DNA of 64,000 bases from an uncultured Oscillospiraceae bacterium. GTDB lineage: Bacteria; Bacillota; Clostridia; Oscillospirales; Oscillospiraceae. The notes beneath the pieces were generated by a model that ran no database searches, was not told the origin of the DNA, and worked only from the letters and a program-made list of their open reading frames with translations. The translations under genes and the position numbers were made by a program. Location of the stretch: NCBI GenBank assembly GCA_947627325.1, contig CANQVO010000003.1, positions 169,263 to 233,262 on the forward strand. The letters run 5' to 3'. Below, in pieces: positions 9,001 to 64,000 of the stretch (its first letter is position 1; each line of letters opens with the position of its first letter).

Positions 9001-9931
9001 CGCGCAGATCTACGTCTCCGGCAGCCAGAGCAGTTTCCAAAAGGTCCGGGGCATCCGCATCGTGCCCGACACGGTCTACGCCCGCCTGGGGGACCCGCCC
9101 TTCCAGCTGGATGTGGTCACCGAGCCCGCCATGCCCTCCAACCGGCGCTACACCTGGAGCACCTCCGACCCCTCGGTGGTCACGGTGGACCAGACCGGCC
9201 GGCTGACCTTCCGGGGGGTGGGCACCGCCACCATCACCGTCACCTCCACCAACGGCCGCCGCGCCACCGCCCTGGTGATGGTCACCGCCTCCGTCCCCGA
9301 GCCCCAGTTCGGCGGCGCCCTCTTTGACCGCCGCTTCCAGGGCCCCTGGATGGAACTGGACCAGTCCGGGGCCTTCCGGCCCCACGAGGGGATGACCCGG
9401 GGGGAGCTGGTCCTCCTGCTGGACCGCTTCCTGAACCCCTCCGCCCAGTGGCAGGCCACCCAGGAGCTGGCCTACGTGGACGTGACCGGCCGGGAGAAGT
9501 ACTACGAGGCCCTCCGCCGCCTCACCGGCGCGGGCGTTGTGGTGGGCACCCCCGGCGGCGCTTTCGCCGGGGACCAGCTGGCCACCCGGGCCGAACTGGT
9601 GGCCATGCTGGCCCGGGCGCTGGAACTGGACGTGACGGACACCCGGGGCATGGCCCACGCCTTTGCCGATGCCGACGAGACCGGCACCTGGGCCTACGCC
9701 TACATCGACGCCCTGGCCAAGGTCGGTGCCATCCGGGGCGTGGGCGACGGCGCGTTCGCCCCGAACCGCCCCATCACCCGGGAGGAGACCGCCGCCATGA
9801 TCGCCCGTCTGCTGGTGGTCAAGCTGGACGAGAGCCAGCCCGGCCTGCGCCGCCCCAGCGACATGACCCCGGAGAACTGGTCCTACCCCGCGGTGCTCCA
9901 GGCCATCAACACCGTCCTCATCTCCGAATGA
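2..9931 (+). CDS. Giant SLH-anchored surface protein (5' partial)
   Basis: The reading frame is open to the left edge, so the N-terminus and any signal peptide lie outside the window; over 3300 residues are visible. In order (numbered from the first visible GTG at 11): a dockerin-like calcium loop with the DVDMDGAVTNGD pattern near residue 458; a module with FWMG, YDSTYVRP and LVLPF around 620-800 that recurs in the next gene; three tandem 450-475-residue super-repeats of MBG-like YGE/YGD modules (about 965-2190); a YDG-type module (KTYDGTT) near 2375; a Big2 Ig-like domain near 3015-3095; and SLH domains over the last 200 residues. SLH domains bind pyruvylated wall polymers, so this protein is probably held non-covalently on the cell surface. 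No catalytic domain was recognised. It lies 65 bases before the next giant gene, on the same strand and with no terminator seen, so the two are probably co-transcribed. An adhesin or S-layer-associated scaffold is inference. Confidence 0.9.
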   Translation, partial: ALDVTNSETGVTRQVSQLSTRPFRVARAEELLAEEKTFNYSAQTEAEANNNRQHTETRKVTAFTPESAQGEEQHYYLRVEEGEDSVDLRFWTQEPYFNYNQNKEGDCPIEVTATFASQPGPGEPLPFKRLTPGWMEKGTKGEEDTDPFFPPSLVVDAFGTRQAQNNMGLPARGQWTVADISLKKVSEAADADHDPYNTITVTIHSPNGAAESVYVFHIERLMTPQSTLGVGNTPAGMILRDDSSLWETEVDWGAVSVEASREEGLVAYNKASALNYFTSHHTFQDMPLRPSGPVNQEGAIYNGVYNTTAWAGGIENPDLDPTAVVAYQDMAFNDPGVSFVDSEGRTVHFGEDADPDYQACVTRTLQLTTTDVLSASTYDDDPGWTSCYYYVDDNGVPGLTSDETKAAQILRRSDGSDPVDLQGLIVLPGVYTAEYAFQDPNRPEDGPVTIQRRVVVLPTPGDVDMDGAVTNGDALALDAKATEWAGKNDQLHLLLRNRVYNILVGPPAQPKALTAETIRANFQPIQGNTEAVGYSDYLYLPLPWNGEDEHARRTWDEVEESKLSPSDAKLRLEFLGVEQGTWYHPDGATYGATYNISGPWAASTQADKDGVSIVAGSPARGQGDVFWMGVYLDDPGTMAGKRIEELSIALVYDSTYVRPAMVYAPGNQGAASGTTDDARWQLSTLLPYNFLGGSKDAEGKGMTIFSGMTGGNYIYTNSVMEQPYTTHYSKVKGELELDYTNEEGLLDSGRLKEVVYSLQRKGGGATMKAGCLLVLPFQLIRHPEARLDGESTARLVELAAGMRDFSVVLSPVAATTRSIFEPFSAKPLAGESAETPNGGAGDGYNSSVQPLAAASGSVYAFSAQDSIYGKTTQNIRAELTYAPEEGRVPIGKDNTERVVLKDANGNDPVYDTEVTIVNTLLYEGTVAGGELPPGLELDPGRSTISGTPLRAGEYQFTVNGLPYQINVKPKTLHYQASAAVSYYGEPEFRGTSASRAGKDLREFTFTYDRADLSDRDQKAAQRIYPDWTAEGKGSAQELKAILDWEKKQDAAVTYTLPTFYAADVDGLDPVRRKTNVGQYDIKPDNAAASTNYQLEHDNGEAGQLTIQARPVWIHSLEMPADRSGSRIYNDESGTNQYLTAQETAGEEFIRLAFDESEAIPQPDGSHLLGDLPLTGEARVAGDTLTLRFSADYVPNAADEAYVELQMAQGGQVAYRFALSDDEETRDLRVIRMYTSFGNTDNYVIRNLDTPLHPEECHIQGTVVRRGVEAIAFVTYPGVLMRNPDGTPMIQAYYGDTVNDEALTVRVTRGAGDGATNVGDYVYNNPLLLPMELHYNWVSPEDKAEGERPENRENLVGTGWNPNAGAGEPEDLHPYNGTTPLTPAMDGWYLCAAVKKYEVDNREDKYIKVYSEYPVRVEKKTITLTVQSTTRYYGEENGQLRYTYNINDFTYTEAEELRNWVTAQSGGEYASPTYDGAEMEKFFRDVLKDESFVAPTLEVAKTCAIPQSDDDRVTSDTSVGNGRYYVIIHGASASNYTFAYRTYDGQTSSGPGAFGSSLMTMIRRPVVIQEIRSPAGDREGYQTIYADTKNLFLQNQTAPGSRVTFVLPEHDEEATYFFRHGGGGDKIRAELTCATDKAVLDRDMAGLSVRYSVRFMCDPGHYRWLGFDNNYYDVATITEHGGVMEKDVVIADVELQGDAAANYEVVYDQASPANQRTPNDVVGRTYNDPTHQGVSTTYLIHGTGTVTLRGVTDIVLQEVGETEYTYGDAYAPYRAGQGNGAAMTVAVRYETTVDESHHNGDVELNDHAQSEVVTYQVNSGVSNFLQRGLTIYYLRSGQSEADAIAAGQTLDHNSPLIPADHDGARLFVGDWRREGDDPIFSEVSQQSLRVSRRALTFTVQDAHRFYGETLHINSLDPADEAHMGTAAFTYSFPTDQLAPRDQEALAELRGVAVSDLPATSTEEDLKALAQALAGTPLRMDLTDPTYTSDPGPTQPVGQEGWGAYPIGITTRDLRNYQVTGRPGTLYVYPRPVWVTDVLTSETDPVYTIYNRSNTMTFTSQLDTRRVVLRRSNEFLVGGEWIDSAASPCVCYDAIPRGLPLSGPATLEGDSLAFTVQLWFYDEPDSRWTLDAGTTDYARDQVEISFRELRHTDAARNYNVTNAATFSQGGFWGAVKLRSIDEIFITRAPRTHYTYGESLDLSDLQVTIRYKALEGLGETNVVDYLGPDSFRAVGLYVNYWYPGDPIPGGRKPSTTAEGEKDPPATTTQEEDEQRRVMPTAIRRADSGDHLTIAPTHDTQRYLTDPVPGDPLARPFAANGKYLIVSAFQDGEGQFPAVPKILGAPVEGVAVDGGVSYESESEPTPIVVDPLPLRYDLTAADKTYDGTTQAAGTLTLENVFDALTQEQVEEKDGVISSSMVQIRDVVYVPMGAGYEDHGADAAHSGYDSYLDALEGGKISFTTGVYQPGGAAPLGDNGALTWAEGYTWGQGLTFTFANPNVHYLEPGESEPAPIGTEELAAYWRANQAANTVVDQWDRYGEVCRMPVEVTGMALAGPDAANYTWAVDGTAQAETEVTMLTRAAETDHQAAAPYATIRKANRGDIPSLAGAEAALPYLQTDEHTNVVRLFYDQSLSAIADNNNAAQPDDYRDELHFEYALYYQDENGLMAQWAGPTGRRAYQDTMFFGGELISLPIDPAYVPDGARLPQQEQAKEDLVRKGQQYRWAEEDSGVSPLGLREDAGVVQDWAAYPGGAEQAQERYGWYYDLYTWGPEGQARQPLPRGTVFYPLVRLSETHNYNPSPCLTGDLAVPAAALNEAQLAVEQLAGGDEDGALTAEAREKSQAVFDAAAEMRQAAEKLFADRVALDAALAQEGAFPEEGRALIGSAPAGRTFLQRLDLISASWERSANGDGTDYLVRILEDVWFTDTLAYPEVKNMNAVVYNDPTRYYNYYWDADKSAQIRFGDQEMPIDFDTVMTVQIRQRQADGSVVELYYTYDPAATNHTAQIYVSGSQSSFQKVRGIRIVPDTVYARLGDPPFQLDVVTEPAMPSNRRYTWSTSDPSVVTVDQTGRLTFRGVGTATITVTSTNGRRATALVMVTASVPEPQFGGALFDRRFQGPWMELDQSGAFRPHEGMTRGELVLLLDRFLNPSAQWQATQELAYVDVTGREKYYEALRRLTGAGVVVGTPGGAFAGDQLATRAELVAMLARALELDVTDTRGMAHAFADADETGTWAYAYIDALAKVGAIRGVGDGAFAPNRPITREETAAMIARLLVVKLDESQPGLRRPSDMTPENWSYPAVLQAINTVLISE
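2908..7110 (+). repeat. Three tandem MBG-type super-repeats
   Basis: Three marker motifs recur in the same order three times in the protein. YYGE/FYGE after a hydrophobic strand occurs near 2940, 4290 and 5715. RPVWI/RPVVI/RPVWV followed by an IYN/IYA segment occurs near 3330, 4690 and 6085. A YYGD/TYGD/TYGE segment leading to a VRV/VRY strand occurs near 3875, 5290 and 6580. The period is about 1.3-1.4 kb. Sequence between the markers is diverged, so these are old duplications, not recent identical copies. Confidence 0.6.
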
Positions 9932-9996
9932 TCCCCCGCCCCGCCATCCTTTGACCCGGCCGTCCCCCAACGGGGGCCCGAAAGGGAGTGTCAGCC

Positions 9997-12900
9997 ATGA
10001 GACAAAAGCTGAAACGATCGCTCGCGCTGCTGCTGTGCGCGCTGATGTTGAGCTCGGAGTTCACCGGGCTCTTCACCGTCGCCCAGGCGGCCCCGGCCGC
10101 CTTTGCCGACCAGGACAGCGCGCCCTCGGCCGCGTCAGCGCTGGCACTCACCGCCCCGGGCGGTGACCCGCTGCAGTACGAGGCCGACGAGAATGGCCGG
10201 CCCAACCTCTTTGTCCACTTCCTGGGGGATAACTACAAGTATGTCTATGACCAGGACGGCGTCAACGCCGGGGCCCAGCCGGATGTGCTCCCCGTCCCCG
10301 CCCCCTACGACCAGAGCGTGGAGACCAACCCCGACGACCTGACCAGCGGCGACCCCACCAACGACGCCCCGGGCAACACCTGGAAGCGGTACCTGGACCC
10401 CCTGGATACCTCTGCCGCCGTTGACCCCAAGAAGGTCATCTTTTGGGTGGGCCTGGGCATCGACCGCCGGGAGGTCTTTGAGCTCCTGGAGAGCGGGAAG
10501 GGCCTGACCAGCCTGGAGGCGGGCTTCTACTACGACAGCCGGTACATTGAGCCCTATGTGGACCCAACGGGCGACTACAAGACCACCATCCAGGCGGCCA
10601 ACATCGCCAACAGCCGCTACCCCGCCAACACCCAGTGGAGCGCAGACTACGAGATCCTGCGGGCGGAGACGGACCTGACCCCCGCCACCGACGCCATCAC
10701 CCAGGAGGAGGTGGCCAACCCCAGCTTTTCCCAAATCATGGGAGACGCCAACTGGAAGATGACCTACGTCTCCCTGGAGTTGAAGGACCCCCTGTCCTCC
10801 ACGGCGAAGCGCCGCCTGGCCGGGGCCTACAAGGGCGTGGACGGCCTCGACCAGGACGGGGAGGGCAACCCCACCACCCCGCCCTCCGCCCACGGCACCG
10901 GGATGCAGAACGCCGGGGGGGTCCAGGCCGAGAGCGACTACCAGTACCTCCTGCTCATCCCCTTCTGCCTGAAGCGCTACGGTGATCCGGAGCAGCTGGC
11001 CCTCCGCCTGGCCCGGAACGCCACCCACCTCTCCATCGGCGCGGGGCAGGAGGGGGAGAGTGCCTACGCTGCCTGGGAGCGGGTGACCACCCGCAACCCG
11101 GGGAAGGACCTCAAGCTCCTCACCCGCTTTAACGGCGACCTCTTCCTCTTTGGCGAGCGCACCCACAGCGGGGAGGTGGAGTACACCGCCACCCTCCACC
11201 TGGATCTGAAGAACCAACTCAACCGCGCCGAGCTCTCCGTGGACGGAGACCCGGCGGTTTGGCCTGTCAAGGCCACCCAGAACCTGGATGTGATCCGGGG
11301 ACTGCGAAGCGGCCTGGGGATGAAGATCCTGACCGTGCCCCAGTCGGGCTACACCGTCACCGTCCGGGTGGACTACAAAAACGCCGCGGGGAAGACCGTC
11401 CTCCACACCTACCAGACGGTCGAGCCCAACAAGGAATACACCTTCGTCATGCCCCAGATGCCCGAGGACGTGCTGACCAAAAACGTGGACGTGTGGATCG
11501 GCTTCTCCACGGAGAACCCGGAGTACTACGTCTACCTCTCCGAGCTCCACCGGGGCGAGGACGGGGCGCCGGTGCCGGACACGGACCGCAAGCTGGGCAA
11601 CAGCACCACCATCACCACCAACCTGGACAGCGCCGGGGACGACACGGACAGCACCCAGGTCATCCACAGCTACTCCCTGGCCTATGACAGCCACCCCACC
11701 CACCCCGACGGCTTCCGGCTGGAGCCCCACGACCCCGGCCCCCGGGCCCGGGCCGACATCAACAAAAAGGTCCGCATCGACGTGACCACCCACAACGACT
11801 ACATGGCGGTGGTCCGCATCGGCAACTTTGACACCACCGGCAGTCTGACCACCACCAACTTCACCCTGGACGCGGCGGAGGGGGACCCCCGGGTGGAGAC
11901 CGACTCCACCTCCCCTGATTACGGCAAGATCACCCTGCCCTACGGCGGCACTATCACCCTCTATATGCCGGGCAACGACGTGGACGTGGAGGTCACCTAC
12001 CTGCCCGCCCCCCGGTACGCCGCCACCCTGGAGGTCTACCACGACCCGGACAACTCGGATACCATCAGCGACCTGAACACCGCCCAGCTGGCCTACCTGG
12101 TCTTTGACGAGTCCAACCTCAGTTCCACGGCGTACAGCGGCGTGGTCTACAACCGCTGGGACGTCCCCACGGAGGACCACCGGGCGGTCAAGGCGGGGGC
12201 GGACAACAAACAGCTGCCCTGGGTGGCCACCTCCCAGGCCGCCCTGTCCGCGGGGATGGCCCCCGACACCGGGCGGAGCGGCATGGTCTGGAACCCCAAG
12301 GACCTGCCCACCCCCCAGGACCCCGTGCGGGGGCTGTACACCGTGATGACCCGGCTGAGAAGCGCCACCGATCTGGCCGACTTTGTGCCCGACCTCTCCG
12401 CCCTGGACCTGAACACCCAGGAGGTGATCCCCGGCTGGACCGGCCTTCGCAAGGACCTCCAGGGCCAGAGCTACGGGGACGACACCGCCGCCTCCCCCGA
12501 CGTGGCCCAGCTGCGGCGCTACCTGTGGGAACTCCGCACCCGCATTGAAAACGACCCGGCCCTGGCCGCTCTTTATGACAAAACGGTCACCCAGACGACG
12601 GACGGCTCCACCTCCACGGTGTACCGCTACTACGACCTGACCGCGGCCCAGGTACAGAGCTATGTGCTGGACATCCTGGAGGCCCAGGAGATCGACCGGC
12701 TCAACCGCCGCCAGTACGCCACGGCCTATTTGACCTACCAGGAGCTCTACGCCCTGTGGGCCGAGCAGGACGCCAAGCCCGCCCTGACCGGCCAGGTGAC
12801 CCCGCCCGAGTTCCCCGCGGAGCCCGGCGGCCTCACCGAGGTGGACGCCCAGGGGGTGCGCCGGTTCCAGGATGAGGACTACCAGAACAGCTACCTGACC

Positions 12901-57505: not shown

Positions 57506-57603
57506 GCCTTTTTTTCAAAAACTTGGCCGAGGCCCGCCCTTTTCTTTCCGCCAAAAGTGGGCAAGATAACGAAACCGCGAAAAAAGAGAGAGGGAGCGAG
57601 ACC

Positions 57604-58410
57604 ATGCTGACAGGACGGACCGACTTGGCGGTGGAGACGGTGGGGGATCTGACCCACGCTGACGGGGTGGGCCACTTCGAGCGGGAGGAGGACGGCGTGC
57701 CGGTGACGGAGGTGGAGATCCAGACCCAGGGCGCGGCGGAGCGGCTGGGCAAAGGGGTGGGGCGGTATGTGACGGTGGACCTGGGCCCCGTCCGCCGCCG
57801 GGAGACCACCGCCTTTCGCCGCAGCGCCCAGGTGCTGGCAAAGGAGCTGGCTAAGCTGCTGCCCCAGGGGGGGACGGTGCTGGTGGTGGGGCTGGGCAAC
57901 CGCTCCATGACCCCGGACCGGCTGGGGCCGCTGTGCTGTGACCACATCCTGGTGACCCACCACCTGGTGAAAAACCAGCCCGGGGAGTTCGGCGGCTTTC
58001 GGGCCGTGGCTGCCCTGGCCCCGGGGGTGCTGGCGAACACGGGGGTGGAGAGCGCCCAGGTGGCCGAGGCCATGGTGGGGCGGGTCCGGCCCGCCTGCGT
58101 CATCGCCGTGGACGCCCTGGCCGCCAGCGACATGGAGCGGCTGTGCGCCACCGTCCAGCTCACCGACACCGGCATCTCCCCCGGCTCCGGAGTGGGCAAC
58201 CACCGCTCCGGCCTGACGGAACAGGCCCTGGGGGTGCCCGTCATCGCCCTGGGGATGCCCACGGTGGCGGAGGCCCACGGGGGCCGCTTCGTCACCCCCC
58301 GGGACATCGACGTGCAGGTGGCCCAGTGCGCCAAGCTGGTGGCCTGCGCCATCAACCTGGCCCTCCAGCCCGGACTGACCATGGAGGACCTGGAGGCCCT
58401 CACCGAGTAG
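57604..58410 (+). CDS. gpr: GPR germination endopeptidase
   Basis: A 268-aa aspartic-type protease that degrades small acid-soluble spore proteins on germination. RTDLAVE at the N-terminus, VGLGNRSMTPDRLGP with a key aspartate, AVDALAASDM with the second, and DTGISPGSGVGNHRSGL are family hallmarks. The ATG has AGAGGGAG upstream; an in-frame ORF extends further left but without a ribosome site. The protein is shorter than Bacillus GPR (about 370 aa), and only four residues precede RTDLA, so the usual propeptide is nearly absent. The spacer to rpsT holds no clear sigma-A promoter on this strand, as expected for a forespore gene. Confidence 0.92.
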   Translation: MLTGRTDLAVETVGDLTHADGVGHFEREEDGVPVTEVEIQTQGAAERLGKGVGRYVTVDLGPVRRRETTAFRRSAQVLAKELAKLLPQGGTVLVVGLGNRSMTPDRLGPLCCDHILVTHHLVKNQPGEFGGFRAVAALAPGVLANTGVESAQVAEAMVGRVRPACVIAVDALAASDMERLCATVQLTDTGISPGSGVGNHRSGLTEQALGVPVIALGMPTVAEAHGGRFVTPRDIDVQVAQCAKLVACAINLALQPGLTMEDLEALTE

Positions 58411-58414
58411 CCGC

Positions 58415-58451
58415 GAAAAAAGCGCCTGACCCGCCGGGTCAGGCGCTTTTT
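58415..58451. terminator. Bidirectional terminator between gpr and the PTPS-related operon
   Basis: AGCGCCTGACCC, loop GCC and GGGTCAGGCGCT are flanked by AAAAA on the left and TTTT on the right, so it can end both converging transcripts. Confidence 0.88.
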
Positions 58452-58461
58452 GGTTCAGAGT

Positions 58462-61182
58462 TTACGGCGCGGCGGGCGATCCGGCCTCCGCCTCCGCTTC
58501 AGGGGCGGCCTCCGGCGGAGTTTCCGCTTCAGGCGGAACGTCTGGCGGGACTTCCGGCTCGGTTTCCGGCTCGACCGCCGCTTCAGGCGGGGCCTCCGGC
58601 GGCACGTCCGGGGGCGTCTCCGGGGACGCGGGGGCGGCCTTTTTCCGCGCCAGGCGCTTTTTCATCAGGGCCAGGTAGGCCGCCGTGGCCACCAGGCCCA
58701 CCCCCGTCATCGCCGCGCTGACGGCCAGGTAGGGGTAGACCAGCCGGATGGTGGTCCGGCCCCGGCCCACCACCGTCAGGTGGGCGCTGTCCACCACGTC
58801 CTCCCGGTCGGGGCGGAAGATGTCGTGGTAGGCCAGGGTGGTGTTCACGTTGTCCCTGGGGGAGTCGATGGTGATGACGTTGTGGTGGTAGTCGATGGAG
58901 AGGGGGACGATCTCCCGTTGGGGCAGCTCCTGGGGGCTCAGATCCAGGGCGTGGGAGAGCAGTTGGCCCACCACCGGGTCCTGGGTCAGGGAGTAGTGGT
59001 AGGTGAGGGCCAGGCCGATGTAGATGATGTTCTCGTTCTCCCCGGTGCCGTAGAAGTCCATCTTCCCCTCCGGCACGTCGGTGATGGTGCCCCATACGTC
59101 GGTCAGGCCGTTGAGGTAGACCGTCTTCCAGTCCTTGGTGTACCCCTCGGGGAACAGCTGGCAGTAGAGCACGCCGTCGATGGTGTCCAGGGCGGGATAG
59201 CCGTTTTGGAAGTTCACGGTGTTACAGCTGACCCCCAGGAAGGTCTTGGAGCCGGTGTGCTCGTCGTCGGGGATGCCGTCGGCCAGGATGAGGACCCGGG
59301 TGCCCTGTTGGCTGACCGTCCGCACCAGGTCCTCCGCCTTGGCCAGGTCCTGGTAGGTGAAGCCGGCCAGGTAGAGCACGTCGTACTTCTCCAGGTCCTC
59401 CGGGGTGTAGTGGTCCAGCTGGGCGTCGTCCAGCTCCTCCACCGCCGGGAAGCCCTTGGCGATGTCCCCCGCGCCGGTGCCGATGGCGGCGGCCCGGTAG
59501 GTGCTGACCACGCCGAAGGTGGCGGGGGTGTCCCGGTGGTAGAGGCGGATGTGGTCGTTGGTCTCCACCAGGGCGTACCCGGACCGGGCGGCGGCGGCGT
59601 CCATCTCCCGGGCAGACTCGGCGGTGAAGTCGGTGGGGCTGACGGGGAAGAGGACCGAGTCGTTGCCCATCTCCAGCAGGCGGTCGAATACGTAGAGGTA
59701 CTGGCCGTCCTCGGCGGCCTCGTTGATCCGCACCAGGTTGAAGTACCGGGGGGCGGCCTGGACGCCCTGGCCGTAGCTGGTGGGCACGGCGTCGTTCCCA
59801 AAGCCGGCCTGGGCGTAGATGCCGTCGGCCACGATGGTGCCCGGCTCCACAATGGAACAGCGCTGCTGGGTGACCACCTTGGCCCGGTCGATCAGGGCGG
59901 CCTCTTCCACCGCGCGGAAGTGCTTGCTGGGGGGATCGGTGGACTCGGCGTGGGTCACCAGGGTGATGCCACAGCAGATCTCCACGGCGAAGAGCAGGAG
60001 GAAGGCCACCTGGATGGAGCGCCGCAGGGACAGCCAGAAGAAAAAGCTCACCAGCAGAACGCACAGGGCGATGGAGATGAACCGGGTCATCCACAGATAC
60101 TGGGCCCCCGGCAGATGGGACAGCAGAGTGTAGGCGGTGGGGGTGGTCATCAGCAAAATCAAAAGGGCGGTCCAGAAGCCGGGCAGGCTCTTGCGCTTGG
60201 CGCACAGCACGCCCAGGATACAGATCAGCAGGGTGGAGAAGCCGAAGTAGGAGGAGTTGCCGTTCCACACCCAGCGGTTCCAAACCCCGTGGAACAGGCC
60301 GGGGACGGGGTTGACCGTGTCCAGCAGGGGGAGGAAGTGGTTGGCCATGACCTGGGAGCTGTCAATGCCGGTGATGCCCCCCTTGATGGAGGGGTAGAGC
60401 AACAGCCCCGAGAGCAAAAAGCCCAGCAGGATGCAGATGACCACCGGCCATATGCTCACCCGCTTGTCCCTGGGCAGGAGCAGGAGGTAGAAGAACAGTA
60501 GAAACAGGGTGGAGATGGCGATCATCCCCGCCCAGCCCACGTGACAGCAGATGATAAAGAGGAAGGAGAAGATGAGCTTGGGAAGGCCCGACCACTTCCG
60601 CTCGTAAAGATAGTCGTACAGCCCCACGAAGAAGATGGGCATGGCGGGCAGGCTGATGGACCGGGCCAGCACCCCCTCGGCAAAGGTCATGAAGAGGTTG
60701 TTGGGCACCAGGAACCAGAAAAGGCCCATCACCGCCCCCAGCCAGGGCCGGCCATGGGTGCAGCCGATGACCAGCCAGACGATGGCGCAGGAGAAGTAGA
60801 GCAGGGCGATGAACAGCAGAAAGCCCAAATCCGAGTTGCCGCCCATCACCGCCTGGCACCCGGCCAGCAGATAGGCCGACAGGGGGGACCAGTACCGCCA
60901 GGTCTGGACCCCGTTGTACCAGGCCATGTCGATCAGGGGGAACCAGTTGCCCTCCTGGGTGATGGAGCGGTAGAGAAACTCCCCCCGGTAGATGTAGAAC
61001 ATGGCGTCCGAGCCGTCTTTGAAGTGGCCGCTGTGGTAGGCCAGGTAGGCCAGCAGGGCGGCCACGCAGGCGTAGAGGATCACGATCCCCGCCAGGGCCA
61101 GGGCGGTGGGGAGGCGACGGGTCCGGGGCCGGGCGGCGCCGGGGAGGGCGGGCCCTCCTGTCTCTAAGACCGCGGTGTCCAT
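58462..61182 (-). CDS. PTPS-related polytopic membrane protein
   Basis: A 906-aa protein. The first 430 residues hold about ten transmembrane helices with short loops; DGSDAMFYIYRGEFLYRSI near 55-72 and GNWFPLIDMAWYNGVQ after it resemble membrane glycosyltransferase-like 6-pyruvoyl-tetrahydropterin-synthase-related (PF10131-type) proteins. A soluble region of about 420 residues follows. It contains a Rossmann- or GATase-like stretch (YDVLYLAGFTYQDLAKAEDL, then GTRVLILADGIPDDE). A last helix near 840 is followed by MKKRLARKK and a Glu/Pro-rich tail, which the positive-inside rule puts in the cytoplasm. It follows the PTPS-fold gene by one base. Function is unknown; a role in polysaccharide synthesis or export is inferred from topology and the phosphoglycerol transferase in the operon. 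Confidence 0.75.
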   Translation of the reverse strand: MDTAVLETGGPALPGAARPRTRRLPTALALAGIVILYACVAALLAYLAYHSGHFKDGSDAMFYIYRGEFLYRSITQEGNWFPLIDMAWYNGVQTWRYWSPLSAYLLAGCQAVMGGNSDLGFLLFIALLYFSCAIVWLVIGCTHGRPWLGAVMGLFWFLVPNNLFMTFAEGVLARSISLPAMPIFFVGLYDYLYERKWSGLPKLIFSFLFIICCHVGWAGMIAISTLFLLFFYLLLLPRDKRVSIWPVVICILLGFLLSGLLLYPSIKGGITGIDSSQVMANHFLPLLDTVNPVPGLFHGVWNRWVWNGNSSYFGFSTLLICILGVLCAKRKSLPGFWTALLILLMTTPTAYTLLSHLPGAQYLWMTRFISIALCVLLVSFFFWLSLRRSIQVAFLLLFAVEICCGITLVTHAESTDPPSKHFRAVEEAALIDRAKVVTQQRCSIVEPGTIVADGIYAQAGFGNDAVPTSYGQGVQAAPRYFNLVRINEAAEDGQYLYVFDRLLEMGNDSVLFPVSPTDFTAESAREMDAAAARSGYALVETNDHIRLYHRDTPATFGVVSTYRAAAIGTGAGDIAKGFPAVEELDDAQLDHYTPEDLEKYDVLYLAGFTYQDLAKAEDLVRTVSQQGTRVLILADGIPDDEHTGSKTFLGVSCNTVNFQNGYPALDTIDGVLYCQLFPEGYTKDWKTVYLNGLTDVWGTITDVPEGKMDFYGTGENENIIYIGLALTYHYSLTQDPVVGQLLSHALDLSPQELPQREIVPLSIDYHHNVITIDSPRDNVNTTLAYHDIFRPDREDVVDSAHLTVVGRGRTTIRLVYPYLAVSAAMTGVGLVATAAYLALMKKRLARKKAAPASPETPPDVPPEAPPEAAVEPETEPEVPPDVPPEAETPPEAAPEAEAEAGSPAAP

Positions 61183-61183
61183 A

Positions 61184-61645
61184 TCACTTCAGCGCCTCGG
61201 CCAGGGCCTGGTCCAGCACGTCGGACAGCGCGGCCTGGGCGGTCTGCTCCGCGCCGGTGAGAAAGACCTCGTCCTGGTCGTAGGAGATGACGTAGCTGCG
61301 GGTGGGGGTCTCCGAGCCCTCGATCTGCTCCAGCTGGCCGCCCACGGCCTGGATCCGCTCCCGGATGGCGTCGCCAAAGTACTCCACCATGTTCTCCAGG
61401 GTGGGGATGATGGCGTCAAAGGGGGCCAGGTCGTTGATGGTCTGGTTCTGGTAGGTGGCGAAGAAGGACTCGATGGTCCGCTCGTAGACCGAGAACTGGA
61501 CGAACTCGCTGTTGGGCAACACCACGTCCAGGATGAACTCCCAGGTGTGGGGGTGGGCCTCGCCCTGCTTGCCGTTGATGATGATGTAGTGGCTGGCGTT
61601 GAGGTAGAATTTGAACTTGTACTTACAAAGCAGTCTGTTTCTCAT
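61184..61645 (-). CDS. PTPS/QueD-fold protein lacking the catalytic residues
   Basis: A 153-aa 6-pyruvoyl/6-carboxy-tetrahydropterin synthase-fold protein. The three zinc histidines are kept (SH at 19, HPH at 31 and 33), as is PTLENMVEYF with the pterin-anchoring glutamate. By eye, the nucleophile cysteine position of QueD (C27) is Gln here, and the Asp-His pair of the LDHxxLN motif is replaced by a YQNQTIND stretch. So the protein probably binds a pterin-like ligand or metal without classic catalysis. ATG at 61645 is chosen for AAAGGA upstream; it overlaps the preceding gene by 23 bases. No queC, queE or folE is nearby, which argues against queuosine synthesis. Confidence 0.8.
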   Translation of the reverse strand: MRNRLLCKYKFKFYLNASHYIIINGKQGEAHPHTWEFILDVVLPNSEFVQFSVYERTIESFFATYQNQTINDLAPFDAIIPTLENMVEYFGDAIRERIQAVGGQLEQIEGSETPTRSYVISYDQDEVFLTGAEQTAQAALSDVLDQALAEALK

Positions 61646-62762
61646 CTTCCAAAGTCCTTTCCACAAAGCGGTTAAAGCAGGTCTCCAGGGGGTCCTCCGG
61701 CGGCTGGGTGAGGGTGAGCTCCCCGGTGAGCTGTACCCCGGGGATCTGGATGTTCTCCTTGACGGCGCTGAGCTCCAGCGCCTCCACCCGCAACAGGACC
61801 AGCAGGATGTGCTTGTCGTCCAAAAGGGCGCGGAGGATCTTGTGGTTCATCTGGAACTGGGTGAAGCGCAGGAACTGGTGCTGTTCCTCCTCCCCGCCAC
61901 AGCGCAGGATCAGAAGGGTCAAGGGCCAGGCGTCCTTGCCCTCCAGCTTTTCCCACAGCATGGGCAGGGCCTTGGCGGTGTAGGCGGTGCGTTGGGCGTC
62001 GTAGAGGTCCTCCTTATGAAGGGCGCTGTTGAGCTTTTCCGTCTGCTTTCGCAGGGCCACGTTGTCCTCCGCCTCGGCGAAGTATTTCCGGCGGTAGGAG
62101 CTGGCCACGAAGAAGAGGATCTCGATGGCCACCACGAAGATGACCAGGGCGATGAGGGCCAGGGTGATGAGGTTGATCTTGGCGGTGAGGTAGGCGTTGT
62201 GGTCCAGGATGGTGTAGATGTTGGTCAGCAGGCAGACCTTATAGGAGTTGCCCTGGAAGCGGAACTCCGCCCCGGAGGCCACGTAGGACTGGGAGCCGAT
62301 CTGGATGGTGTCGTGGACGATGCGATCCCCGCTCAGCGCGTCCACAAAGCCCCGGGCCGAGTCGGTCTGGTAGTAGGAGGCGGTGGTGAAGCCCCCACGG
62401 GCGGCCCCGGCCTGGTAGCGGTTCGTCTCGGTCACGTCCTTGACGAAGATCAGCGAGCTCTGCCGGGACAGGGTCCAGTACCGGGTGGAGGAGGCGTCCA
62501 GGGTGGCCAGGATGCGCTCGATGTCGGCCTCGCTCCCGCCCCGCTGTTCGGTCAGGCGGATCTGCTCCAGCACCAGCTGGACGTAGCCGTCCTGCTGGGT
62601 GGCGTACACGTCCAGCACGCCCCGCTCATAGCTGCCCAGCTGGAGCCAGGCCAGATAGCCCACCGCCGCGGCCAACAGCAGTGCGGCAACGGTGACCAGC
62701 CAGGGCCGTATCCCCGGCCGGGCCTTTTTGCGCGGCTTGGATGCTTTGGGGTTTTTCTTCAT
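61623..62762 (-). CDS. Two-TM sensor-like membrane protein, cytoplasmic domain possibly degenerate GGDEF
   Basis: A 379-aa protein. A basic N-terminus (KKNPKASKPRKKARPG) precedes a first helix near 21-40. An extracytoplasmic domain of about 155 residues (ERGVLDVYATQQDGYVQLVL, later YKVCLLTNIYTIL), cache-like in layout, leads to a second helix near 197-222 and a coiled-coil-like stretch (EAEDNVALRKQTEKLNSAL). The cytoplasmic end has LTLLILRC, ILRALLDDKHILLVLLRVE and VQLTGELTLTQPPEDPLETCFNRF, an alternation that would fit a GGDEF fold, but no GGDEF motif or metal residues are present. I do not recognise the family with certainty. It overlaps the genes on both sides, so it is an integral part of the operon. 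Confidence 0.65.
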   Translation of the reverse strand: MKKNPKASKPRKKARPGIRPWLVTVAALLLAAAVGYLAWLQLGSYERGVLDVYATQQDGYVQLVLEQIRLTEQRGGSEADIERILATLDASSTRYWTLSRQSSLIFVKDVTETNRYQAGAARGGFTTASYYQTDSARGFVDALSGDRIVHDTIQIGSQSYVASGAEFRFQGNSYKVCLLTNIYTILDHNAYLTAKINLITLALIALVIFVVAIEILFFVASSYRRKYFAEAEDNVALRKQTEKLNSALHKEDLYDAQRTAYTAKALPMLWEKLEGKDAWPLTLLILRCGGEEEQHQFLRFTQFQMNHKILRALLDDKHILLVLLRVEALELSAVKENIQIPGVQLTGELTLTQPPEDPLETCFNRFVERTLEDEKQTAL

Positions 62763-64000
62763 GCCGTCCTCCTCTCAGCCTGGACCTGGGGATCCTTGTC
62801 CTGGGCGGAGCCCAGGACCGCCAGCTCCGGGGCGAAGTGGTTGATGTAGAAGCCGGACTGGACGGATAATTCCTCGTCCAGGGCGGCGGGGCCCATGGAC
62901 TCGCTGAGGGTCCGCCGGGTGGCGAAGAGGTCGGTGCCCAGGCCCAGCCGGTCCCCCCGGATGTCAAAGCCCAGGGCGGACAGGGTGGTGGGGAAGATGT
63001 CCAGGGCGTTGCACTGGCGGTTCCGCGCCCGCACGGGGCCGTCGGTCACGGCGTTGATGAAGCAGTTGTACACGCCCCGCTGTTCCCAGGGGGTCTCCCC
63101 CACCAGCACGGTGTCCATCCGGGGGTGGTCGCCGGTGATGACGATGACGGTGTCGTCATAGAAGTCCTGGGCCTGGCACCAGGCCACGAAGGCGCCCACC
63201 TGGGCGTCGGCGCAGGCCACCACGTTGGCGGCCCGCTCGGCGTGGTCGTTCCCGCACAGGGGGCAGAGGTAGCCCTCGGGGTAGTGGGTGTCCGCGGTGA
63301 GGAGGGTCAGGTTGAAGGGTCGGTCGCTCTGGGACAGGCGCTGGAGCTCCAGCTTGGCGTACTCGTAGAGCTTGGCGTCCTCAAAGCCCCACCACTCGTA
63401 GTAGTCCTCGTCCAGGTAGCCCCGCTCGATGGCGGTGTAGTAGTCAAAGATCTCGTAGTCCCCGTGCTGGCGGAAGAAGTCGGCGCGGTTGGCGAAGTCG
63501 AAGTCGGAGCCGCAGAGGAACTCGTTGCGGTAGCCCGCCTCCTTCAGGATATCCCCCAGGGTGGTCAGGCCCGAGGCGTAGGCCCCCATCTTCTCCACGG
63601 CGCTCTCGCTGACGGGGAGGGCGAAGTGGACCCCGGAGGAGGTGGAGAAGAGGGCGGCCATGGTCCAGGTGGCGCCCACGTTGGAGTAGAACCCGCCCAG
63701 GGGGCTGTCGCTGGAGGAGAAGGAGACGTTGGCCCGGGCCAGCCGGGTCAGGTTGGGGATCAGGTTGGTCTCCTGCACGCCGCCCACGTCGGGGGAGGCG
63801 TAGGTGGTCTCCATGCTCTCCATGTAGATGTAGATGAGGTTTTTGGGCTTTTGGGCGGTGGTGATGGACACGCTCCGGGGGTCCACATAGGAGTCCTCAT
63901 AGAGGGAGGAGTAGGTGAACTTGGAGGCCAGAAAGCCCGTCAGGTTGTAACAGGCGTTGGCGTAGATCAGCGACCCGGCCAACAGCAGACAGGTGAAGCA
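62759..64000 (-). CDS. OpgB/LTA-synthase-type phosphoglycerol transferase (5' partial)
   Basis: The frame is open to the right window edge, so the N-terminal membrane part is missing. The visible 413 residues are a sulfatase-fold domain: LIYIYMESMETTYAS (metal site), ETNLIPNLTRLARANVSFSSS, GATWTMAALFSTSSGVHF with the probable catalytic threonine, LTADTHYPEG and VIVITGDHPRMD. The TWTMA context is closer to OpgB/MdoB (phosphatidylglycerol to glucan transferase) than to LtaS. A CPLCGNDH segment near the TADTH motif may bind zinc or be a local insert. Its stop overlaps the next start as ATGA. It may decorate a glycan made or moved by the other operon members; this is inference. Confidence 0.83.
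   Translation of the reverse strand, partial: CFTCLLLAGSLIYANACYNLTGFLASKFTYSSLYEDSYVDPRSVSITTAQKPKNLIYIYMESMETTYASPDVGGVQETNLIPNLTRLARANVSFSSSDSPLGGFYSNVGATWTMAALFSTSSGVHFALPVSESAVEKMGAYASGLTTLGDILKEAGYRNEFLCGSDFDFANRADFFRQHGDYEIFDYYTAIERGYLDEDYYEWWGFEDAKLYEYAKLELQRLSQSDRPFNLTLLTADTHYPEGYLCPLCGNDHAERAANVVACADAQVGAFVAWCQAQDFYDDTVIVITGDHPRMDTVLVGETPWEQRGVYNCFINAVTDGPVRARNRQCNALDIFPTTLSALGFDIRGDRLGLGTDLFATRRTLSESMGPAALDEELSVQSGFYINHFAPELAVLGSAQDKDPQVQAERRTA

What the first reader, a model, noticed from the sequence alone, without database searches (positions are those of the whole stretch)
58462..64000. Four-gene overlapping operon built around a dead pterin-synthase fold
An OpgB-like phosphoglycerol transferase, a two-TM sensor-like protein, a PTPS/QueD-fold protein and a large PTPS-related membrane protein are joined by 4-base and 23-base overlaps and a 1-base gap. 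Such tight packing implies one machine. None of the usual folate or queuosine partners is near. One hypothesis is a regulated surface-glycan synthesis/decoration system in which the PTPS fold acts as a soluble ligand-binding subunit of the membrane protein. This is the best candidate in the window for an undescribed system.
Basis: partly seen in the sequence, partly recalled or inferred. Interest (0 to 1): 0.72.

Follow-up and report, generated by a model that had tools for sequence, protein, structure and literature searches.

The report
Exosortase G surface-glycan operon
The four genes are the downstream part of a seven-gene operon, a known but almost unstudied Gram-positive exosortase (XrtG) system that seems to build and decorate a surface glycan and anchor one surface protein; this variant has a sensor subunit that no library names and suggests what the 'dead pterin synthase' does.

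Summary
The packing is real: the 4-base overlap, 23-base overlap and 1-base gap are exactly as stated. The window edge hid the upstream part. Past 64000 it is a seven-gene minus-strand operon: GT2-GtrA, Firmicu-CTERM substrate, exosortase XrtG, polysaccharide-synthase-type GT2 fused to the 'OpgB-like' domain, two-TM sensor, PTPS, PF10131 membrane protein. NCBIfam names it above curated cut-offs (TIGR04145, TIGR03110, TIGR03111, TIGR03112), so it is not an undescribed system, though I found no experimental function. New here: the membrane protein has an oligosaccharyltransferase-like GT-C fold; the sensor is an unnamed family (Cache domain plus dead GGDEF) confined to XrtG genomes; PTPS keeps zinc histidines and ligand Glu but never the catalytic Cys; and where the substrate is fused to XrtG, XrtG's Cys is Asn (4 of 4). 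Likely mechanism: extracellular sensing, relayed through PTPS, gates a lipid-sugar-dependent glycosyltransferase that decorates the surface glycan.

The parts
62759..64000 (-). C-terminal part of a 994-aa ORF (whole ORF 65743..62759): TIGR03111 processive-type GT2 (residues about 11-443) fused to a sulfatase/LtaS-OpgB-like phosphoglycerol-transferase domain (residues about 618-949)
   Evidence: TIGR03111 578.6 bits, cut-off 363.95; PF00884, PF00535; GT2 DxD, ED and QRQRW motifs; Glu, Thr and GDH of the transferase domain invariant in 14 sequences
61623..62762 (-). Sensor subunit, 379 aa: TM1, extracellular Cache-type domain, TM2, coiled coil, degenerate GGDEF-fold domain; no Pfam or NCBIfam family
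   Evidence: no family; found only in XrtG genomes; AF2 pLDDT 88.9; Cache Z up to 13.7; GGDEF Z about 11.5; no GGDEF or metal motif in 71 sequences
61184..61645 (-). PTPS-fold (T-fold) protein, 153 aa: zinc His triad H19/H31/H33 and E112 kept, QueD catalytic Cys lost
   Evidence: TIGR03112 126.9 bits, cut-off 69.35; His triad 119/121, Glu112 116/121, Cys 0/121 over all copies
58462..61182 (-). PF10131 'PTPS_related' membrane protein, 906 aa: GT-C fold glycosyltransferase, oligosaccharyltransferase/arabinofuranosyltransferase-like, with first-loop Asp59
   Evidence: 368.5 bits; AF2 pLDDT 87.0, pTM 0.84; OST STT3 Z 19.2, 461 residues, 4.6 A; AftD; PglB; ArnT; D59 in 37/41
58416..58451 (.). Bidirectional rho-independent terminator (AAAAAAGCGCCTGACCCG...CGGGTCAGGCGCTTTTT) that ends the operon
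   Evidence: read directly from the sequence

Best explanation
This is an exosortase G (XrtG) system (identity about 0.97). Inferred working: the GT2 (TIGR03111) polymerises and extrudes a surface polysaccharide. The fused LtaS/OpgB-like domain adds phosphoglycerol to it outside the cell. The GT2-GtrA protein makes a polyprenyl-phosphate sugar, which the GT-C membrane protein (PF10131) uses outside the cell to add further sugar to the polymer or to the surface protein. XrtG cuts the Firmicu-CTERM protein at its W-x-x-TAGTSTGP tail and passes it to a membrane or glycan anchor, tying the protein to the glycan. Output is controlled: the Cache domain of the sensor reads an extracellular small molecule, and the signal passes through TM2 and the dead GGDEF domain to the cytosolic PTPS, a zinc-bearing ligand-binding regulatory subunit that in several species is the N-terminal domain of the GT-C enzyme and gates it. 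Shown: gene content, order, co-occurrence, fusions, predicted folds, lost and kept residues. Inferred: polymer chemistry, what is decorated, the ligands, and the direction of control.
For: NCBIfam hits above curated cut-offs for four XrtG families. XrtG Cys-Arg-His triad present. GT2 processive motifs DxD, ED, QxxRW and intact metal/Thr residues of the phosphoglycerol-transferase domain. GT-C fold of the PF10131 protein. Cache plus GGDEF fold of the sensor without catalytic motifs. PTPS keeps the zinc triad and Glu but never the catalytic Cys. Co-occurrence: 11 of 11 TIGR03112 genomes have XrtG among 398 (hypergeometric 1.4e-20), and 8 of 8 sensor genomes have XrtG among 291 (7.8e-15). Fusions: PTPS-PF10131, sensor-PTPS, PTPS-PF10131-CTERM, CTERM-XrtG, GT2-phosphoglycerol transferase. 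In the sensor-PTPS fusion the PTPS sits where the GGDEF domain normally is. No pterin pathway: the genome has no FolE, no FolE2 and only this PTPS.
Against: No experiment on any component was found. The acceptor of the GT-C enzyme and the polymer are unknown. Asp59 is Asn in 3 and Glu in 1 of 41 homologues. The phosphoglycerol-transferase fusion is present in only 8 of 57 evaluable loci and a GT2-GtrA gene was found nearby in only 12, so those steps are accessory. More distant systems (L060-L070) lack the sensor, so its control is not essential to the core machine. No complex could be modelled. Direction of signalling is a guess.
Confidence: 0.55

Rival explanations
1. Protein glycosylation machine: the GT-C enzyme is an oligosaccharyltransferase/PMT-like enzyme that glycosylates the low-complexity stalk of the Firmicu-CTERM protein, and XrtG then sorts the glycoprotein; the GT2 makes that glycan rather than a free polysaccharide.
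For: Best fold matches of the PF10131 protein are protein oligosaccharyltransferases (OST, PglB, AglB) and C-mannosyltransferase. Some substrates carry Thr/Pro-rich repeats, e.g. TEEPTTEAPTTE in L059/L142.
Against: AftD and AftA, which act on polysaccharides, match about as well (Z 18.9 and 16.7). Thr/Ser/Pro-rich stalks are not universal (median best 60-aa window 0.32 T+S+P; only 8 of 77 reach 0.45).
Confidence: 0.25
2. The PTPS is still an enzyme, acting on an unknown substrate with its zinc site, and makes a soluble product for the system.
For: Zinc His triad 119/121 and Glu112 116/121 are kept, which a pure scaffold need not keep.
Against: The catalytic Cys is never present and is replaced by varied residues. 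The protein is fused to, or its gene overlaps, membrane components, and the host has no pterin precursor pathway.
Confidence: 0.15
3. Neighbours by chance: four unrelated genes in a compact genome.
For: Gene overlap alone is common in bacteria (general knowledge).
Against: Conserved content and order in about 56 of 57 evaluable loci, co-occurrence, fusions.
Confidence: 0.01

Closest known systems
Exosortase G (XrtG) system (TIGR03110, TIGR03111, TIGR03112, TIGR04145), e.g. Lactiplantibacillus plantarum LP_RS09090-09075 (PMC12854382)
   Same: Exosortase, Firmicu-CTERM substrate, XrtG-associated GT2 and dead PTPS domain, all over curated cut-offs
   Different: Here GT2 is fused to a phosphoglycerol-transferase domain, PTPS and PF10131 are separate genes, and there is an extra Cache-pseudoGGDEF sensor that no library names
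PEP-CTERM/exosortase systems with exopolysaccharide loci in Gram-negatives (from the literature, not tested here)
   Same: Exosortase plus C-terminal tripartite sorting tail next to glycan synthesis genes
   Different: Usually many substrates per genome (PMC3237569); here one clear substrate; no PTPS, GT-C or sensor subunits of this kind known to me
QueD / 6-pyruvoyl-tetrahydropterin synthase
   Same: T-fold family, zinc histidines, pterin-binding Glu
   Different: Catalytic Cys absent in all 121 copies; membrane partners; no pterin pathway in the host
GT-C glycosyltransferases (OST STT3, PglB, AftD, AftA, ArnT)
   Same: Predicted fold over about 460 residues (Z 15-19) and an Asp in the first external loop
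   Different: About 10% identity; large extra C-terminal extracellular beta region; substrate unknown
Membrane diguanylate cyclases and degenerate GGDEF regulators (PelD-like, LapD-like)
   Same: Sensor domain, TM, coiled coil, GGDEF fold, next to a polysaccharide synthase
   Different: No GGDEF or metal motif; not shown to bind c-di-GMP

Membership tests
Exosortase G (XrtG) system | XrtG exosortase (TIGR03110) with Cys-Arg-His triad | tested here: met
   180.9 bits, cut-off 102.75; C99, R141, H161
Exosortase G (XrtG) system | Firmicu-CTERM substrate (TIGR04145) with tripartite tail next to XrtG | tested here: met
   95.2 bits, cut-off 50; tail WIRTAGTSTGP + TM + RRRQARRR; 4-base overlap with XrtG
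Exosortase G (XrtG) system | XrtG-associated glycosyltransferase (TIGR03111) | tested here: met
   578.6 bits, cut-off 363.95
Exosortase G (XrtG) system | PTPS-related domain (TIGR03112) | tested here: met
   126.9 bits, cut-off 69.35
Exosortase G (XrtG) system | XrtG-dependent cleavage of the substrate | not testable with these tools
   needs a mutant or an in vitro assay
Active PTPS/QueD enzyme | Zinc-binding His triad | tested here: met
   H19, H31, H33 in 119 of 121 copies, window copy included
Active PTPS/QueD enzyme | Catalytic Cys (QueD Cys27 position) | tested here: not met
GT-C glycosyltransferase superfamily | GT-C fold | tested here: met
   predicted model, OST STT3 Z 19.2 over 461 residues at 4.6 A; AftD 589 residues
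GT-C glycosyltransferase superfamily | Acidic residue in first external loop | tested here: met
   D59 in 37 of 41, Asn 3, Glu 1
Diguanylate cyclase (GGDEF) | GGDEF fold | tested here: met
   SadC Z 11.5 (146 residues, 4.1 A), DosC Z 11.3 (122, 3.2 A)
Diguanylate cyclase (GGDEF) | GG(D/E)EF motif and metal-binding D-x-D-x-F-K | tested here: not met
   0 of 71 sequences
LtaS/OpgB-type phosphoglycerol transferase | Metal ligands and nucleophile Thr | tested here: met
   ESME, TWT and GDH residues present and largely invariant in 14 fusions; assignment to LtaS residues is from general knowledge

The most novel reading that the evidence does not exclude
A retired metabolic enzyme fold (zinc T-fold PTPS) has become the intracellular receptor that couples a Cache-pseudoGGDEF sensor to an oligosaccharyltransferase-like GT-C enzyme, so an extracellular cue controls glycan decoration and exosortase-dependent attachment of a protein to that glycan. 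In the lineage where substrate and exosortase are fused, proteolysis was dispensed with (Cys to Asn), so XrtG's lasting role would be to hold the substrate at the glycan machine rather than to cut it.
Probability: 0.2. Interest if true: 0.78.

Novelty: new variant of a known kind. Interest (0 to 1): 0.5.

Why it matters
XrtG systems occur in many gut Clostridia and in Lactobacillus, yet only two papers that mention one were found in the open library, neither with a mechanism. This work gives a complete parts list, including a component no library names, assigns folds to the two unexplained membrane parts, and turns the 'dead pterin synthase' into a testable regulatory subunit. The Cys-to-Asn change in substrate-fused exosortases is a natural experiment on what exosortases are for.

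Tried and rejected
Undescribed system: rejected by NCBIfam hits. Pterin, folate or queuosine biosynthesis: rejected, no FolE, FolE2 or other PTPS in the genome. Active diguanylate cyclase: rejected, no motifs. PilZ-type c-di-GMP control: no PilZ in the genome; four GGDEF domains exist elsewhere, so c-di-GMP itself is not excluded. Known family for the sensor: 52 members against Pfam gave no consistent family. Mucin-like O-glycosylation as a general rule: the Thr/Pro stalk is not universal. Solved relative of the Firmicu-CTERM ectodomain by sequence: nothing significant; a CBM9/DOMON resemblance is my impression only. The Lactobacillus acidophilus gts operon (PMC6123363) as the same system: its text mentions no exosortase or pterin gene. 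Haft 2012 (PMC3256604) is not held. Promoter and terminator scan is at chance level. Complex modelling was not possible with the structure tool.
Full report
OBSERVATION. The four ORFs and their junctions are exactly as described: 4-base overlap at 62759-62762, 23-base overlap at 61623-61645, one base between 61184 and 61182. The window is G000:C3:169263-233262 of a 2.3-Mb, 30-contig genome. Reading C3 past the window edge (L002; window = L002 + 55737) shows that the operon starts upstream. In order of transcription: GT2-GtrA, 352 aa (69751..68693); Firmicu-CTERM protein, 775 aa (68653..66326); XrtG, 203 aa (66329..65718, 4-base overlap); GT2 + phosphoglycerol transferase, 994 aa (65743..62759, 26-base overlap); sensor; PTPS; PF10131 protein. 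A perfect bidirectional terminator at 58416-58451 ends it.

IDENTITY. NCBIfam gives TIGR04145 Firmicu_CTERM (95.2 bits, cut-off 50), TIGR03110 XrtG (180.9/102.75), TIGR03111 (578.6/363.95) and TIGR03112 (126.9/69.35). Pfam adds GT2 + GtrA, PF00884, and PF10131 at 368.5 bits. This is therefore an exosortase G system. The open literature searched holds one paper that names a 'complete XrtG system' (L. plantarum, PMC12854382) and one gene list (PMC8951740); neither gives a mechanism. The sensor matches no family.

CONSERVATION AND CO-OCCURRENCE. Four relatives from the same GTDB family carry the XrtG-to-PF10131 block in the same order. In 398 genomes of the phylum, strong XrtG hits occur in 12 and TIGR03112 above cut-off in 11, all 11 inside the 12 (hypergeometric 1.4e-20; relatedness of genomes is not corrected for). 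In 291 genomes of the class, XrtG is in 9 and the sensor (E below 1e-9) in 8, all inside the 9 and none elsewhere (7.8e-15, same caveat). A scan of named genomes with an XrtG profile gave 80 loci, mostly Lachnospiraceae and Oscillospiraceae, the nearest in rabbit-gut MAGs. Of 57 loci with enough flank, 57 have the substrate, 57 GT2, 56 the sensor, 57 PTPS, 56 PF10131; 8 have the GT2-phosphoglycerol-transferase fusion and 12 a GT2-GtrA gene close by. Commonest orders: CTERM XrtG GT2 sensor PTPS PF10131, with or without a second PTPS in front, or with PF10131 moved between CTERM and XrtG; gaps between the main neighbours have medians of -17 to +13 bases.

FUSIONS. PTPS is fused to the N-terminus of PF10131 in L060 and L062-L068. 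In L060, L067 and L068 the same protein goes on into a domain like the Firmicu-CTERM ectodomain plus a sorting-type tail. That domain and the Clostridia Firmicu-CTERM ectodomain are related by profile comparison (90.6%, E 1.3e-6; TIGR04145 itself scores only 15.9-19.4 bits there, below its cut-off). In L061, L063, L065 and L066 that domain is fused to the N-terminus of XrtG. In L059/L142 (one genome) the sensor's Cache and TM parts run into PTPS, which takes the place of the pseudo-GGDEF domain. In the window's family and some Lachnospiraceae the GT2 is fused to the phosphoglycerol transferase. The chain of fusions links sensor, PTPS, GT-C enzyme, substrate and exosortase.

RESIDUES. PTPS: His19, His31 and His33 all present in 119 of 121 copies and Glu112 in 116; the QueD catalytic Cys position is Cys in none, and no Cys lies in residues 24-31. 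XrtG: Cys-Arg-His in 88 of 88 copies not fused to a substrate domain, Asn-Arg-His in 4 of 4 copies that are. These four come from two GTDB families and may be a single event. The GT2 has the DxD, ED and QxxRW motifs of processive synthases, and the phosphoglycerol-transferase domain keeps its Glu, Thr and GDH residues.

FOLDS. AlphaFold2 of the sensor (52 sequences, pLDDT 88.9): extracellular Cache domain like chemoreceptors and WalK (Z up to 13.7) and a C-terminal GGDEF fold (SadC Z 11.5, DosC 11.3); no catalytic motif in 71 sequences. AlphaFold2 of the PF10131 protein (41 sequences, pLDDT 87.0, pTM 0.84): GT-C fold, best matches oligosaccharyltransferase STT3 (Z 19.2, 461 residues, 4.6 A), AftD (18.9, 589 residues), AftA, PglB, ArnT and C-mannosyltransferase. 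In GT-C enzymes the N-terminus, and so a fused PTPS, is in the cytosol (general knowledge).

HOST. No FolE, FolE2 or PilZ, and no second PTPS; four GGDEF domains elsewhere; one PF10131. So the PTPS has no pterin substrate made by the usual route. A divergent gene pair upstream, an HPt-like protein and a receiver + HD-GYP-like protein, may be a regulator (named by eye).

MECHANISM. Shown: parts, order, co-inheritance, fusions, predicted folds, residues. Inferred: GT2 makes and extrudes a polysaccharide; the phosphoglycerol transferase and the GT-C enzyme, fed by GT2-GtrA, decorate it or the substrate protein outside; XrtG processes and anchors the substrate; the sensor acts through PTPS on the GT-C enzyme. 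The PTPS is best read as a zinc- and ligand-binding regulatory subunit, because the pocket residues are kept while catalysis is lost, and because evolution attaches it either to the sensor or to the GT-C enzyme. Which ligand it binds is open; purine- or pterin-like molecules are the usual ligands of the fold (general knowledge).

VERDICT. A real and conserved machine, already known in outline as the XrtG system; the variant, the sensor component and the fold assignments are what this adds. Interest 0.5.

Noticed in passing
L061:226-1428, L063:9014-10216, L065:109-1305, L066:10214-11416: Exosortases fused to a Firmicu-CTERM-like domain have Asn in place of the catalytic Cys (4 of 4), unlike all 88 others.
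   Followed up: partly
37 loci, e.g. L085:4725-5078, L059:8926-9318: Many Lachnospiraceae systems carry a second, more diverged PTPS copy directly before the substrate gene, also without the catalytic Cys but mostly with the His triad.
   Followed up: partly
L060:9786-13676, L067:2013-5915, L068:7388-11251: PTPS-GT-C-CTERM single proteins; in L060 the TM before the CTERM domain ends in a signal-peptidase-like VPQSALA-A, so it may be a polyprotein.
   Followed up: no
L002:14230-16146 (beyond the window edge): Divergently transcribed HPt-like protein and receiver + HD-GYP-like protein next to the operon, kept in close relatives (L014, L074-L076) and placed downstream in L083 and L084.
   Followed up: partly
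L007 (G000:C2:74299-74763): A 2317-aa ORF elsewhere in the genome has a weak Firmicu_CTERM ectodomain match (22.7 bits, below cut-off).
   Followed up: no
L141:10572-11105: Apparent internal deletion joining the start of GT2 to PTPS and the end of the GT-C protein; a remnant system or an assembly error.
   Followed up: partly
L071:10085-11533; L066:6715-9537 and 9540-10217: XrtG joined to GT2 in one ORF beside a truncated substrate domain (L071), and a PTPS-GT-C gene split in two ORFs (L066): decay or assembly errors.
   Followed up: no
window 57523-58410 (+ strand): The convergent neighbour looks by eye like the germination protease gpr, so the host may be a spore former.
   Followed up: no
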